Source of the DNA: Mesorhizobium australicum
GTDB taxonomy: Bacteria; Pseudomonadota; Alphaproteobacteria; Rhizobiales; Rhizobiaceae
Direction of reading: 5' to 3'
Length of the DNA stretch: 64,000 nt
Assembly (NCBI RefSeq): GCF_900177325.1
Contig: NZ_FXBL01000004.1
Span: 3,782,001-3,846,000 of the forward strand
Shown piece after piece: positions 16,555 to 61,006 of this stretch (position 1 is the stretch's first letter; each line of letters opens with the position of its first letter). Below the pieces are notes generated by a model. That model was not told the DNA's origin. It saw nothing but the letters and a program-made list of their open reading frames with translations, and made no database searches. Both the position numbers and the translations under genes were made by a program.

Positions 16555-16596
16555 GCTGCCCGTTGCCACGCCGGCCAGCTTCTCCTATCGTGCCCG

Positions 16597-16734
16597 CGTT
16601 CTCAGGGCGGGGCGAAACTCCCCACCGGCGGTATGCGGCGGAAGTCGCGAGCCCGCGAGCGCCTTCGATATGAAGGGTCAGCAGATCAGGTGCGATGCCT
16701 GAGCCGACGGTTACAGTCCGGATGGAAGAGAACG
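16597..16734 (+). promoter_or_regulatory. FMN riboswitch (RFN element)
   Basis: The conserved RFN core is readable in order: CGTTCTCAGGGCGGGGCGAA at the 5' end, CTCCCCACCGGCGGTAT, AGCCCGCGAGCGCC, GGTGCGATGCCTGAGCCGAC, GGTTACAGTCCGGATGGAAG and the closing GAGAACG. The P1 strands CGTTCTC (16597-16603) and GAGAACG (16728-16734) pair exactly. It precedes ribH by about 76 bases, so FMN binding should repress ribH. Confidence 0.97.
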
Positions 16735-16810
16735 GGCAGCGGCAGACCCACGCGGGACTGCTCTGCGCGTGATCGCCTTGGGTGACGTGTCGCAACCGAA
16801 GGAGATCACG

Positions 16811-56372: not shown

Positions 56373-57140
56373 CTACGTCGCCCGTCGCATGGTGGTTCGT
56401 ATGGCGTGGATGACGCTCTTGCGCGCTTCCTCGGGCAGCATATGGCCGATGCCGGGCAGGACGACGAGCTGGAAGCTCTCCGGCAAGCCCTCGGACTGCG
56501 AGAACGGCAGCACCGGATCGTCCGTGCCCCACACGACGGTGACGGGCATGGCGAGCGTCGCCAGGCTGTCGCGCGGGATCTCGCCCTGCTTGCCGTCCTT
56601 CGCGATCTTGCCGACGATCTCCACCAGCTTCGCCTCCTGGCCGGGCAGCGAGCGGGTCGCGGCGAGTGCAGCGATGTTCTTGGTCGGCATGTCGAAGCCG
56701 GGCGCGCCGAGCGCATTGACCGCGGCGCGCAAGCCATCGGTGGAGCCGGGTGAGGCGAGGTTCTTCAGCCGGTCTTCGCTGATATCCGGGCCGAAGCCGC
56801 CGGGCGCCAGAAGGGTCAGCGAGGCGACGCGGTCGGGCGCGCGCAGCGCCATCAGCGTGGCAACGGCGCCGCCCATCGAGAAGCCGGCGACATGCACGCG
56901 CGCAATCCCGCGCTGGTCGAGGTCGGCGAGGATCGCCTTCGCCATGCCCGAGGCCGACCCCGCCGCCGGATGGTCCAGCGAGCGGGCATGACCGGGAAGG
57001 TCGTAGGCGAGCACGCGGGCGTCGCGCGCCAGGTCCGGCTGGATGTCGTACCAGTCCATCCAGTGGCCGCCGAAGCCGTGCAGGAGAACGAGCGTCTCGC
57101 GCCCGTTCCCCTTCTCGCGCGCGTGCAGCGTGTCGCTCAA
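56373..57140 (-). CDS. Alpha/beta hydrolase
   Basis: 255 residues. HGFGGHWMDW oxyanion region, nucleophile elbow GFSMGGAVA, acidic residue in WGTDDPVLPF and the His in GIGHMLPEE. It starts at TTG (57140), overlapping the leuA stop by 4 bases (TTGA), with AAGG upstream, so translation is coupled to leuA. No pathway link to leucine synthesis is evident. Function unassigned. Confidence 0.85.
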   Translation of the reverse strand: MSDTLHAREKGNGRETLVLLHGFGGHWMDWYDIQPDLARDARVLAYDLPGHARSLDHPAAGSASGMAKAILADLDQRGIARVHVAGFSMGGAVATLMALRAPDRVASLTLLAPGGFGPDISEDRLKNLASPGSTDGLRAAVNALGAPGFDMPTKNIAALAATRSLPGQEAKLVEIVGKIAKDGKQGEIPRDSLATLAMPVTVVWGTDDPVLPFSQSEGLPESFQLVVLPGIGHMLPEEARKSVIHAIRTTMRRAT

Positions 57141-58855
57141 GCCTTGGCTTTCCTGCCTTCGAGGATGCGGTTGGCCGCGGAGACCACCGCTTCGAGCGAG
57201 GCGGCGACAATGTTGGTGTTGATGCCCGCCCCAAACAGCCTGCCGCCCGGATGCTCCATCTCGACATAGGAGATGGCGGCTGCGTTCGAGCCGCGCTGCA
57301 TCGAGTGCTCCGAATAGTCGAGCACCGACATGTCGACGCCGACATGGCGCGACAGCGCGTCGACGAAGCCGTCGATCGGGCCGGTGCCCGTGCCGGTGAT
57401 CGTCACCTCCTTGCCGCGGTCGAGGATCGTCGCCTCGACCTTGCGGCGCTGGCGGTTCTCCGGGTCCGAGATCGTCTGGTGGTCGACGAACTTCAGACGA
57501 CCCTTCGGCTGGTCGACATAGCGCTCGAGGAACTGCTCGTAGATGCGCTTCGCCGGCACTTCCTTGCCCTCGGCATCGGTGATCGACTGGATGTGCTGCG
57601 AGAACTCGACCTGGAGGTTGCGCGGCAGGTTCAACCCGTAATCGGCCTGCAGCACGTACGCGATGCCGCCCTTGCCGGACTGCGAGTTGATGCGGATGAT
57701 CGCCTCATAGGTGCGGCCGACGTCCTTGGGGTCGATCGGCAGGTAAGGAACCTCCCATAACTCCTTGTTCGCCTTCTTGATCGCCTTCATGCCCTTGTTG
57801 ATGGCGTCCTGGTGCGAGCCGGAAAAGGCGGTGTAGACCAGCTCGCCGACATAGGGGTGGCGCTCAGGGATCTTGAGCTGGTTCGAATATTCGTAGACGT
57901 CCTTCATCCGGTTGATGTCGGTGCAGTCCAGCTCGGGGTCGATCCCTTGGGTGTACATGTTCAGCGCGAGCGTCACGATGTCGACATTGCCGGTGCGCTC
58001 GCCATTGCCGAACAGCGTGCCCTCGACCCGGTCGGCGCCCGCCATCAGTGCCAGCTCGGTGGCCGCCACACCCGTGCCGCGGTCGTTGTGCGGGTGCAGC
58101 GAGACCATGATCGAGTCGCGCCTGTCGAGGTTGCGGCACATCCATTCGATCATGTCGGCATAGATGTTGGGCGTCGACATCTCGACGGTCGCCGGCAGGT
58201 TGAGGATCAGCTTGTTGTCCGGCGTCGGATTGACGATCTCGGTGACGGCGTTGCAGATCTCCAGCGCCACATCGAGCTCGGTGCCCGTAAAACTCTCCGG
58301 CGAATATTCGAAGCGGAAGCCGCCGCCCGCCTTCGCCGCCATGTCGGTGATCATCTTCGCCGCATCGGTCGCGATCTGCTTGATGCCGCGCACGTCCTTC
58401 TCGAACACGACGCGCCGCTGCAACTCGCTGGTCGAGTTGTAGAAATGCACGATCGGATGGCGTGCGCCCTGCAGCGATTCGAAAGTGCGCGTGATGAGTT
58501 CGGGGCGGCACTGCACCAGCACCTGCAGCGAGACGTCGTCCGGAACGCCTGCTTCCTCGATTGCCCAGCGGGCAAAGTCGAAATCGGTCTGCGAGGCCGA
58601 CGGAAAGCCGATCTCGATTTCCTTGAAGCCCATGTCCAGCAGGAGCTTGAACATGCGAGCCTTGCGGTCATGGCCCATCGGGTCGATCAGCGCCTGGTTG
58701 CCGTCGCGCAGGTCGACCGAGCACCAGATCGGCGCAGTCTCGATGCGCTTCGACGGCCAGGTGCGGTCGGGAATGTCTATGAAGGGATAGGGCTGGTATT
58801 TGCGCGGGGCGTCCGGCATGCCGCGCTTCTGGGATATCGGGCTGTGCTTGTTCAT
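57137..58855 (-). CDS. leuA: 2-isopropylmalate synthase
   Basis: 572 residues. It condenses acetyl-CoA with 2-ketoisovalerate, the first step of leucine synthesis. Motifs are WCSVDLRDGNQALIDPMGHD (catalytic), SLHPHNDRGTGVA (metal-binding His), and GNGERTGNVD. The C-terminal regulatory domain after YGLNLPRNLQVEFSQHIQSI provides leucine feedback. The ATG at 58855 has GGAG 8 bases upstream; the longer frame upstream runs into leader structure. This is the long (type II) form. The stop overlaps the alpha/beta hydrolase start. Confidence 0.95.
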   Translation of the reverse strand: MNKHSPISQKRGMPDAPRKYQPYPFIDIPDRTWPSKRIETAPIWCSVDLRDGNQALIDPMGHDRKARMFKLLLDMGFKEIEIGFPSASQTDFDFARWAIEEAGVPDDVSLQVLVQCRPELITRTFESLQGARHPIVHFYNSTSELQRRVVFEKDVRGIKQIATDAAKMITDMAAKAGGGFRFEYSPESFTGTELDVALEICNAVTEIVNPTPDNKLILNLPATVEMSTPNIYADMIEWMCRNLDRRDSIMVSLHPHNDRGTGVAATELALMAGADRVEGTLFGNGERTGNVDIVTLALNMYTQGIDPELDCTDINRMKDVYEYSNQLKIPERHPYVGELVYTAFSGSHQDAINKGMKAIKKANKELWEVPYLPIDPKDVGRTYEAIIRINSQSGKGGIAYVLQADYGLNLPRNLQVEFSQHIQSITDAEGKEVPAKRIYEQFLERYVDQPKGRLKFVDHQTISDPENRQRRKVEATILDRGKEVTITGTGTGPIDGFVDALSRHVGVDMSVLDYSEHSMQRGSNAAAISYVEMEHPGGRLFGAGINTNIVAASLEAVVSAANRILEGRKAKA

Positions 58856-58869
58856 CTGTCGTTCTCCGG

Positions 58870-58999
58870 AGCCGCCGGCGCGCTGAGGCGTGTACGGACG
58901 GCGTCCTAGCATGCATTGATCGAGATTGGGACTGGCGAGGAGCGCAAGCCTGGGCGGCTATCGACCGCCGGGCGCCCCTCTTCAGCGAGCCCGGCGATC
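58870..58999 (-). promoter_or_regulatory. Candidate leuA attenuator: competing stems between leader peptide and leuA
   Basis: Stem 1 pairs 58989-58999, the end of the leader reading frame, with 58963-58973 (11 bp, one G-U). Stem 2 pairs 58965-58969 with 58953-58957 and shares bases with stem 1. Stem 3 pairs 58953-58959 with 58870-58876 and ends beside the leuA Shine-Dalgarno (58864-58867). Stems 1 and 2, and 2 and 3, are mutually exclusive. A ribosome stalled at the Leu codons would disturb stem 1. There is no U-run, so control of translation is more likely than termination. Confidence 0.6.
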
Positions 59000-59101
59000 G
59001 CCGATAAGGCCGAGAAGAAGCAGGGTCGAGGAGAACGCGCGCGCCGTCTCGCCCGCGAAGGCGGCGAAACGGGAGACGGTGATGGTCTGGCGCGACGACA
59101 T
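58982..59101 (-). CDS. Candidate leuA leader peptide with four consecutive Leu codons
   Basis: 39 codons on the leuA strand, from ATG at 59101 to TGA at 58984-58982, 127 bases upstream of leuA. It encodes SSTLLLLGLIGDRRAR at its end; the Leu run reads CTG CTT CTT CTC. A run of regulatory amino-acid codons upstream of the matching biosynthetic gene is the hallmark of leader-peptide attenuation, which is established in proteobacteria (including rhizobial trpE(G)). No strong ribosome site was seen, which lowers confidence. It sits within the 286-base gap 58856-59141. Confidence 0.6.
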   Translation of the reverse strand: MSSRQTITVSRFAAFAGETARAFSSTLLLLGLIGDRRAR

Positions 59102-59141
59102 GGCGCGCTCAATATCCGAAGCCGCGCGCCGGCGCAAGCCG

Positions 59142-59852
59142 TCAGGCCGGCTTTGCGGCATTTGCCTGTTCGATGAGCCGCGCGCTGCGGCCAACGAGCT
59201 GGCTGGAATAGATCACCGCCGCGCAGCCGATCGGGAAGATCACTTCGTTGATGATGCTCGACGCGATCTGCACGGCGCCGGGCGACAAGCCCTTCGAGAC
59301 CGCCACCTGATAGGTGAAGAAGGCGATGGCGCCGCCGAACACCACGCCCACCAGCCCGCCCGAGCCGAAATAGCGCGTGGCGCGGACCTCGCTTTTCTGG
59401 ACGAGACGCGCCAGCAGCCAGCCGAGCACGCCGTATTCGACCGCGCGCAGCACCGAGATGGCGCTGAGCGACAGGACCGGCTCCTGCTCGGCCGCGGAGA
59501 CCAGCCCCGCCATCACCTTCTGGCTGGACTTGGCGAACGCCACCGCGAGCGGCGCGACCAGAAGCGACACCAGGCCCGCAACCAGCGGCTTTGCCTTCGA
59601 CACGGCCGTGACGATGCCGACCCCGACGCAGATCAGCAGCGACCAGGAGACGCCATGCGTGAGATCGGCGATGATCGTCGAGGTCGCCGGCGTGATCCCG
59701 CCCGCGAGCTTCGAGAGGAGGATCAGGCCCTGGATGGCGAAGCCGAGCAGGATCGAGAGCAATGCGATCAGCGCGATGCGCCTGACCAGCGCGCCGGCCT
59801 GCTCCCCATCGGCGGGCTCGCCGTCCGCCACCTCGATCCGACCGTCCGTCAT
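59142..59852 (-). CDS. Multi-spanning membrane protein, unknown function
   Basis: 236 residues with about five to six hydrophobic segments (for example IALIALLSILLGFAIQGLIL; VSWSLLICVGVGIVTAVSKA; LVGVVFGGAIAFFTYQVAV; IASSIINEVIFPIGCAAVIY). The N-terminus is acidic. AGGAG lies 10 bases upstream of the ATG at 59852; a second in-frame start at 59873 is possible. It has no motif that identifies a transporter family. It lies 71 bases after the AbrB-family gene on the same strand. Confidence 0.8.
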   Translation of the reverse strand: MTDGRIEVADGEPADGEQAGALVRRIALIALLSILLGFAIQGLILLSKLAGGITPATSTIIADLTHGVSWSLLICVGVGIVTAVSKAKPLVAGLVSLLVAPLAVAFAKSSQKVMAGLVSAAEQEPVLSLSAISVLRAVEYGVLGWLLARLVQKSEVRATRYFGSGGLVGVVFGGAIAFFTYQVAVSKGLSPGAVQIASSIINEVIFPIGCAAVIYSSQLVGRSARLIEQANAAKPA

Positions 59853-59923
59853 CTCATACGGGCTCCTGCACATGCCGTTACGTAATGGCCGAGCGAGACG
59901 ATGCTTGCAAGCCCTTGGCGTTC

Positions 59924-61006
59924 CTAGTCGGGCTCGCGGACCCGCTCCGCGAGCCAGCGCACGACCGGCGGGCCGGCGAGCAGGACGATCAGGAAGCGCA
60001 TCATCTGCATTGCCATGACGAAGGCGATGTCCACCGAACTGGACGCAGCAGCGATGATGGCGACGGTGTCCATGCCGCCTGGGCTGGTTGCCAGATAGGC
60101 GGTCAGCGGGTCGATGCCGAGGGAGTGGACGAGCACCCACGCGACCGCGCCGCAGAAGCCGATGAGCAGGAGGACGGCCAGCATGACCTGCGGCAGCGAG
60201 CGGCCGGCATGCGCGAGCACCTTGCGGTCGAAACGCAGCCCGATCGACCAGCCGACCAGCACGTAGCTTATGGCGAGCAGCCAGTGCGGCAGTTGCAGCG
60301 GCAGGCCGAAGCCGGCGTGGACGACGATGCCGAGCAGCATCGGCCCGAGGAAGATCGCCGCCGGCAGGCGCACCAGCCGGCCGCCGACAACACCGGCCAG
60401 CGCGACGGCGAGCGTCGTCATGAACGGTCCCCACTGCAGCGGCGGGAACCATGCGACCGGCGACCGCTCGATCCCCGACGTGTCGACGAACAGCCTTGCG
60501 ATCAGCGCGGCGGCGATCGAGACCATGATGACGCGGACATATTGCATGAAGGCCACCAGCCGCGCGTCGGCGCCGAAGGCGTCGGCCATCAGCACCATCG
60601 CAGAGGCCGCACCCGGCGCGGAGCCCCAGATCGCGGTCGTTCCGGGAAGGATGCCGAACCGGGCGATCAGGCCGCCGAGCCCGCCGCTGGCCACCAGCGT
60701 GGCGAGCGTCGCGCCAAGCAGGATCGGCCAGTCGTCCAGAAGGGCGGCGAACAGGGCGGGCTCAAGCGAGGCCGCGATGAGGCAGCCGATGATCGCCTGC
60801 GCGCCCAGCAGGGCGACCGGCGGCAGGCTGAGCCGCGCGCCGAGGACGCCGACCACGATGCCCGCGATCATCGGCCCGATGAGGAGCCCGGCCGGCAGGT
60901 CCGCCCACTCGAACAGCGCGGAGAAGGCGACGGAAAGAACGACGAGCAGGGCCCACCAGCCCAGCTTCGCAAGACGAGATGTCGGATCGGCCTGCTGTTG
61001 TCCCAT
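59924..61006 (-). CDS. AbrB-family (AidB regulator-like) membrane protein
   Basis: 360 residues with about ten hydrophobic segments in two repeats (GLLIGPMIAGIVVGVLGARL; FLGPMLLGIVVHAGFGLPL). TTAIWGSAPGAASAMVLMAD and AYLATSPGGMDTVAIIAA are the repeated P-G motifs of the AbrB family. The name follows E. coli AbrB and should not be confused with the Bacillus DNA-binding AbrB. The transported compound is unknown. Confidence 0.88.
   Translation of the reverse strand: MGQQQADPTSRLAKLGWWALLVVLSVAFSALFEWADLPAGLLIGPMIAGIVVGVLGARLSLPPVALLGAQAIIGCLIAASLEPALFAALLDDWPILLGATLATLVASGGLGGLIARFGILPGTTAIWGSAPGAASAMVLMADAFGADARLVAFMQYVRVIMVSIAAALIARLFVDTSGIERSPVAWFPPLQWGPFMTTLAVALAGVVGGRLVRLPAAIFLGPMLLGIVVHAGFGLPLQLPHWLLAISYVLVGWSIGLRFDRKVLAHAGRSLPQVMLAVLLLIGFCGAVAWVLVHSLGIDPLTAYLATSPGGMDTVAIIAAASSSVDIAFVMAMQMMRFLIVLLAGPPVVRWLAERVREPD

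What the first reader, a model, noticed from the sequence alone, without database searches (positions are those of the whole stretch)
58870..59101. Candidate leuA leader peptide and attenuator with four consecutive Leu codons
On the leuA strand a 39-codon frame ends TLLLLGLIGDRRAR, with four adjacent Leu codons (CTG CTT CTT CTC). It stops 127 bases before leuA. An 11-bp stem overlaps the end of the frame; a second and a third stem compete with it, and the third ends beside the leuA ribosome-binding site. This is the logic of ribosome-mediated attenuation. Lack of a U-run points to translational control. Leader-peptide attenuation is established in proteobacteria; this specific layout at leuA was worked out from the sequence here.
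Basis: partly seen in the sequence, partly recalled or inferred. Interest (0 to 1): 0.7.

Follow-up and report, generated by a model that had tools for sequence, protein, structure and literature searches.

The report
Leucine-sensing leader in front of leuA
Just before a leucine-making gene, this Rhizobiaceae genome carries a tiny leucine-rich reading frame and a folding RNA, conserved in its relatives, that most likely lets ribosomes short of leucine turn the gene on.

Summary
A 39-codon ORF (59101-58982, minus strand) ends TLLLLGLIGDRRAR*, 126 nt before leuA. It is not chance: the 30 family-level leuA loci read first all carry it, and so do the 110 loci read next (some are duplicates), 109 with leuA still on the contig. 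Two helices covary: P1 (11 bp) spans the leader stop codon; P2 starts just after the stop and crosses P1, so they compete or form a pseudoknot (99% of 522 cells pair). Three additions. (1) A TTGC-17-TAT promoter ends 6-7 nt before the leader ATG in 112 of 129 leaders, predicting leaderless translation. (2) CTT is 54% of leader Leu codons but 3% in leuA. (3) Similar leaders precede leuA in 61 of 90 loci from other alphaproteobacterial families, against 8 on the reverse strand and 13 after shuffling; 13 loci look tandem. Leucine-responsive ribosome-mediated attenuation is the best reading. No U-run follows P2, which disfavours a canonical terminator. Translational output is only weakly favoured; U-less or Rho-dependent termination is not excluded. 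No Rfam or NCBIfam match to the leader was found.

The parts
59132..59137 (-). -35 box TTGCGC of the predicted leader promoter
   Evidence: Coordinates; TTGC-17-TAT pattern in 129 leaders, score 9.5 or more in 99% vs 17% of shuffles
59109..59114 (-). -10 box TATTGA, ending 7 nt before the leader ATG (predicted leaderless start)
   Evidence: 6-7 nt in 112 of 129 leaders
58982..59101 (-). Leader ORF, 39 codons plus stop
   Evidence: conserved
59012..59023 (-). Four consecutive Leu codons CTG CTT CTT CTC (a fifth Leu, CTT, at 59008-59006)
58990..59000 (-). P1 left arm, inside the last leader codons
58962..58972 (-). P1 right arm
58974..58980 (-). P2 left arm GAGGGGC, directly after the stop codon, in the P1 loop
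58937..58943 (-). P2 right arm GCTCCTC (anti-Shine-Dalgarno-like)
   Evidence: own-versus-other test
58953..58969 (-). P3, inner GGCGG/CCGCC helix of the P2 hairpin, shares bases with the P1 right arm
   Evidence: coordinates; loop folds better than shuffles, mean z -0.82 in 30 genera
59030..59037 (-). CGTTCTCC in the leader, complementary over 8 bp to the leuA ribosome-binding site
   Evidence: this exact 8-mer is a window observation, not tested for conservation
58860..58867 (-). leuA ribosome-binding site GGAGAACG
57137..58855 (-). leuA, long-type 2-isopropylmalate synthase

Best explanation
It is a leucine-responsive, ribosome-mediated attenuator of leuA (the sensing part alone I hold about 0.93 likely). 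A promoter fires at the leader ATG and ribosomes translate the leaderless 39-codon ORF. When charged tRNA-Leu is short they stall on the CTT/CTC-rich Leu run just 5' of the P1 left arm, so P1 can fold; P2, whose left arm lies in the P1 loop, can stack on it as a pseudoknot or form its own hairpin. Anti-Shine-Dalgarno-like segments (the Leu run under the ribosome, the P2 right arm in P2) are thereby kept from the leuA ribosome-binding site and leuA is translated. When leucine is plentiful the ribosome runs to the stop codon, its footprint covers the P1 and P2 left arms, these segments become free and leuA is shut down. Shown by comparison: the ORF, its Leu identity, codon bias, promoter pattern, P1 and P2. 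Inferred: the leucine response, the direction of control, the pseudoknot, and translation as the output.
For: Leader with Leu run in front of leuA: 30 of 30 loci, then 110 of 110 with 109 still showing leuA. P1 and P2: 99.0% of 522 cells paired, 7 of 18 pairs changed on both sides; P1 score 24 or more in 98% of 130 vs 5.7% of shuffles, P2 score 16 or more in 127 of 130 vs 18%. At the Leu codons bases 1-2 are nearly fixed and base 3 drifts; CTT 93 of 173 Leu codons vs 34 of 1128 in leuA. Promoter at the ATG. No U-run. Own-versus-other complementarity to the leuA ribosome-binding site: P2 right arm p = 0.0039 in 30 genera, Leu run p = 0.0055 in 27, stable when outliers are dropped (p 0.003-0.011).
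Against: No expression data. The P2-right-arm test gave p = 0.076 under the first start-codon rule and p = 0.06 without L026; the Leu-run window was one of 42 scanned and would not survive a full correction. Ribosome-position folding: the site is more open in the stalled than the stop state in 10 of 30 genera, less in 7, same in 13. L017, L021, L028 and L030 show poor complementarity of P2 right arm and leuA site. P1 is absent from the ribosome-free minimum-energy fold of the window. The P2 right arm lies roughly 70-130 nt from leuA.
Confidence: 0.5

Rival explanations
1. Transcription attenuation with the same sensing leader: P1 is the antiterminator, the P2/P3 hairpin a terminator of a U-less or Rho-dependent kind. 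With leucine the ribosome opens P1, P2/P3 forms, and transcription ends before leuA.
For: P1 and P3 share bases, so P1 excludes the full P2/P3 hairpin; the P2 loop folds better than shuffles, mean z -0.82, 13 of 30 below -1; an A/C-rich, G-poor stretch follows P2 over about +4 to +16, which could load Rho.
Against: No U-run: 2 of 30 genera have 5 or more T in 9 nt. P2 is not demonstrably conserved in other families. Neither Rho nor termination could be tested.
Confidence: 0.38
2. The RNA is a binding site for a protein or other factor and the leader is passive, as was proposed for the actinobacterial LEU element.
For: P1 and P2 are strongly conserved in sequence as well as pairing; the LEU-element paper argues for a protein (passages).
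Against: Leu identity at drifting third positions, the CTT bias and the promoter placed for the ORF point to translation of the Leu codons as the signal.
Confidence: 0.06
3. The leader RNA or peptide acts mainly in trans, as the Sinorhizobium trp attenuator RNA and peTrpL are reported to do.
For: The trpL precedent in a rhizobium, also a leaderless leader (passages).
Against: The N-terminal part of the peptide varies widely between genera; conservation concentrates on the Leu run and the RNA arms. No trans target was sought.
Confidence: 0.04
4. Chance: GC-rich sequence gives open frames and hairpins.
For: The whole region folds no better than shuffles (z -0.90).
Against: Conservation and covariation, codon bias and promoter.
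Confidence: 0.01

Closest known systems
Gammaproteobacterial leu operon attenuator (leuL; an Rfam Leu_leader family, recalled)
   Same: Short ORF with four adjacent Leu codons before leuA and competing helices (recalled).
   Different: No U-run terminator here; no Rfam match; leuA is the long type; predicted leaderless start.
Actinobacterial LEU element upstream of leuA (PMC1262725; passages seen)
   Same: Upstream ORF with a Leu run, a pseudoknot-like pair of helices, and a proposed pairing of the Leu codons with the leuA Shine-Dalgarno box; TIGR00970 leuA rings in Corynebacterium glutamicum too.
   Different: Here P1 spans the leader stop codon and leuA lies about 80-200 nt further on; no actinobacterial sequence was compared, so homology is untested. 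There the authors cite mutations of the Leu codons without the classical effect.
Alphaproteobacterial ilvIH/ilvB leader attenuators (Vitreschak 2004, not read; cited in passages)
   Same: Branched-chain amino-acid codons in a leader before a biosynthetic operon in the same class.
   Different: Another gene and other codons; described as acting through a rho-independent terminator in Caulobacter (passage).
Sinorhizobium trpL/rnTrpL attenuator (PMC10117765, passages)
   Same: Leaderless leader ORF in a rhizobium.
   Different: Tryptophan, trpE, 14 aa peptide.
uORFC-8-2 motif before cysS in Rhodobacterales (PMC8632094, passages)
   Same: Alphaproteobacterial leader ORF with tandem cognate codons and two stems.
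   Different: Cysteine and a tRNA synthetase gene.
ermC-type translational attenuation (recalled)
   Same: Proposed output: a stalled ribosome frees a masked ribosome-binding site.
   Different: Amino-acid rather than antibiotic stalling; output unproven here.

Membership tests
Ribosome-mediated amino-acid attenuator (general kind) | Leader ORF with a run of codons for the end product of the downstream gene | tested here: met
   Leu run before leuA in 30 of 30 and 110 of 110 loci; Leu identity kept at drifting third positions
Ribosome-mediated amino-acid attenuator (general kind) | Helices overlapping the leader end that compete or cross | tested here: met
   P1 and P2 covary
Ribosome-mediated amino-acid attenuator (general kind) | Leader is transcribed and translated | not testable with these tools
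   Promoter pattern supports it; no RNA or ribosome data
Ribosome-mediated amino-acid attenuator (general kind) | Expression responds to leucine through the Leu codons | not testable with these tools
   Needs an experiment
Classical transcription attenuator with intrinsic terminator (leuL type) | GC-rich hairpin followed by a U-run | tested here: not met
   5 or more T in 9 nt after P2 in 2 of 30 genera, not in the window
Classical transcription attenuator with intrinsic terminator (leuL type) | Match to an Rfam family | tested here: not met
   None at gathering level; only chance-level matches at E up to 10
Actinobacterial LEU element | Leu-run ORF before leuA | tested here: met
Actinobacterial LEU element | Two crossing helices (pseudoknot topology) | tested here: met
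   Topology only; simultaneous formation not tested
Actinobacterial LEU element | Leu codons pair with the leuA Shine-Dalgarno box | tested here: inconclusive
   p = 0.0055, one of 42 windows; stable on dropping outliers
Actinobacterial LEU element | Common descent | not tested
   No actinobacterial sequence was fetched

The most novel reading that the evidence does not exclude
A leucine switch for long-type leuA spread through the Alphaproteobacteria, built of one or two Leu-rich leaders with stop-spanning hairpins. In Rhizobiaceae it works purely on translation: the CTT/CTC leucine codons double as an anti-Shine-Dalgarno strand for leuA, so a ribosome stalled for lack of leucine unmasks the leuA start by sitting on its own mask, while a pseudoknot around the leader stop codon holds a second anti-Shine-Dalgarno strand.
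Probability: 0.25. Interest if true: 0.7.

Novelty: new variant of a known kind. Interest (0 to 1): 0.52.

Why it matters
It gives a concrete cis element for leucine control in the Rhizobiaceae, which include nitrogen-fixing symbionts, with a predicted start site, sensing codons and two testable helices, and no match in Rfam or NCBIfam. If the output is translational, it would be a second lineage in which the Leu run and the leuA ribosome-binding site are complementary, and would make the unresolved actinobacterial LEU element testable in easily handled rhizobia. The CTT bias (54% vs 3%) offers a handle: synonymous swaps should separate codon sensing from RNA pairing.

Tried and rejected
P2 as a class-wide helix: in 31 proximal leaders of other families P2 reached score 16 in 39% vs 25% of shuffles, so P2 is claimed only for Rhizobiaceae and one genus of family f11. 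Intrinsic terminator: disfavoured, no U-run. Rho site: suggested by a G-poor stretch, not testable here.

Tests that came out mixed or against the reading: ribosome-position folding; the P2-right-arm/leuA-site test, p = 0.076 under the first start rule, 0.0039 after excluding the internal GMPxA methionine, a change made after seeing the first result, and 0.06 without L026. In the promoter test the real ATG with the best promoter was chosen among in-frame ATGs while shuffles used that one ATG, which favours the observed value somewhat. The distal-leader promoters had no shuffled control. Rows in the large sets are related, so p values and percentages overstate independence.

Rows dropped or not read: one search found 36 same-family genomes (own included) with a strong match; the 30 best loci were read. 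One search used 128. One search left out three near-duplicates of the window genus (27 rows). The class set was 90 of 111 matches. The split into distal and proximal leaders used hand-written patterns. Three weak order-level hits and four of seven other class-level hits were not followed.

Literature: ten searches showed no description of an alphaproteobacterial leuA leader; I saw listings, and passages of nine papers. Vitreschak 2004 and Lopatovskaya 2010 were seen only as references and could not be read, so priority is not excluded. Not used: the search for homologous proteins, structure prediction.

Full report
What is there. On the minus strand a 39-codon ORF runs from 59101 to 58982 and ends SSTLLLLGLIGDRRAR*; leuA begins at 58855. 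leuA is the long type (TIGR00970, 768.4 bits, cut-off 697.4). NCBIfam and Pfam gave no family for the leader at E up to 1, Rfam no match above chance level. The upstream ORF stops at 59142, so the promoter boxes fall into the 40 nt between it and the leader.

Conservation. LeuA was searched in 61 genomes. Thirty loci, the best of 36 same-family genomes with a strong match, were read: each has an ORF ending in a Leu-rich stretch and a conserved tail, followed by the same RNA arms. A covariance model of these 30 found the element in 35 of 397 genomes of the order: 19 of the 21 family members listed, 13 genomes of one genus of family f11, and 3 weak hits not followed. One of the two family members without a hit (G199) also lacks a TIGR00970 match. 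Of 110 further loci (30, 80 named Rhizobiaceae, among them Mesorhizobium, Aquamicrobium, Chelativorans, Nitratireductor and Aliihoeflea) all have the leader and 109 have leuA downstream; L058 reaches its contig end. Some of these repeat genomes of the first set. In the window's own genome the model hits only this place.

Structure. P1 pairs the last leader codons with sequence beyond the stop codon. P2 pairs the bases after the stop codon with GCTCCT-like sequence 25-51 nt on. The P2 left arm lies in the P1 loop, so the helices cross. On the 30 sequences 99.0% of 522 cells form standard pairs; 7 of 18 pairs have changes on both sides (3 of 500 shuffles reach this); sliding the register by 1-3 columns drops pairing to 33-53%. 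Examples are GGG:CCC to GGA:TCC in P1, and AGGAGC:GCTCCT to AGGGGC:GCCCCT or AGAAGC:GCTTCT in P2. Without an alignment, P1 scores 24 or more in 98% of 130 leaders vs 5.7% of shuffles, and P2 16 or more in 127 of 130 vs 18%; among the 30 first loci P2 holds in 29 vs 19% expected.

Coding and promoter. At the Leu codons bases one and two are nearly fixed and the third drifts. CTT is 93 of 173 Leu codons in the last 18 leader codons but 34 of 1128 in the leuA genes of the same 30 loci (odds ratio 37, p = 3e-64, relatedness ignored). A TTGC-17-TATnnn promoter precedes the ATG with 6 or 7 nt between -10 box and ATG in 112 of 129 leaders; scores of 9.5 or more in 99% vs 17% of shuffles. This predicts leaderless translation. 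The window has TTGCGC 59137-59132, TATTGA 59114-59109 and ATG 59101.

Wider distribution. In the class 111 of 385 genomes have a long-type leuA at E 1e-100 or better. In 90 such loci from outside the family, 61 have an upstream ORF with Leu codons near its end and a hairpin across its stop codon, vs 8 on the reverse strand and 13 after shuffling; with the stricter rule of three Leu it is 53 vs 2 and 2. Forty-eight have CGACTT[A/C] near that stop. My patterns gave 32 loci a distal leader (...LRLTxPxL*) and 29 a proximal one resembling the Rhizobiaceae leader (...RLIGGRRA*), 13 both. Of 31 distal leaders 30 have a promoter-like pair of boxes ending 5-10 nt before a 16-22-codon ORF, without a control. 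Model R1 hits just upstream of leuA in three genomes of other families (G631, G715, G792). In 8 of 9 loci of family f64 the leader ends LRL[TIM]RP with a stop-spanning hairpin; of 14 loci outside the class 4 had a Leu-rich upstream ORF and one (L256) a hairpin of like strength.

Mechanism. The sensing codons lie 5' of P1, and the stop codon and the P2 left arm lie within reach of a terminating ribosome, so the fold must depend on where the ribosome stands. What the fold does to leuA is open. Against an intrinsic terminator: 5 or more T in 9 nt after P2 in 2 of 30 genera. For a role at the ribosome-binding site: the P2 right arm and the Leu run are more complementary to their own leuA site than to others; the Leu-run signal survives dropping outliers, the P2 signal leans on L026; in the window an 8-bp helix joins the leader to the leuA site in the minimum-energy fold, in which P1 is not formed. 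Folding with ribosome masks: P2-right-arm/site pairing is higher at the stop state in 11 of 30 and lower in 3, but openness of the site is mixed, 10 up, 7 down. For termination: the P2 loop folds better than shuffles and a G-poor stretch follows. I put 0.5 on translational and 0.38 on transcriptional output.

Known or new. Leader-peptide attenuation is established. The actinobacterial LEU element is closest in logic (passages). Ten searches showed no account of a leuA leader in Alphaproteobacteria, but two key papers could not be read. I call it a new variant of a known kind.

Noticed in passing
L153, L164, L170, L171, L173, L178, L190, L191, L197, L204, L207, L215, L221: Thirteen loci of other alphaproteobacterial families appear to have two Leu-rich leader ORFs in tandem upstream of leuA (hand-written patterns).
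   Followed up: partly
58910-58936 and the same place in 128 leaders: An A/C-rich, G-poor stretch follows the P2 right arm in Rhizobiaceae (G 4-15% at most positions from +5 to +16, about 30% further on). Possible Rho-loading or simply unstructured RNA.
   Followed up: no
L256: A locus outside the class has a Leu-rich upstream ORF with an 11-bp stop-spanning hairpin before leuA.
   Followed up: no
16594-16737 (+): FMN riboswitch, 110.6 bits.
   Followed up: no
59142-60014 (-): The ORF just upstream, about 290 aa from an internal ATG, has no Pfam match at E up to 0.1; its neighbour 59924-61006 is an AbrB-family protein.
   Followed up: no
G005:C1:387414-389128: In one same-genus genome leuA reads as two overlapping frames, a frameshift or an assembly error.
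   Followed up: no
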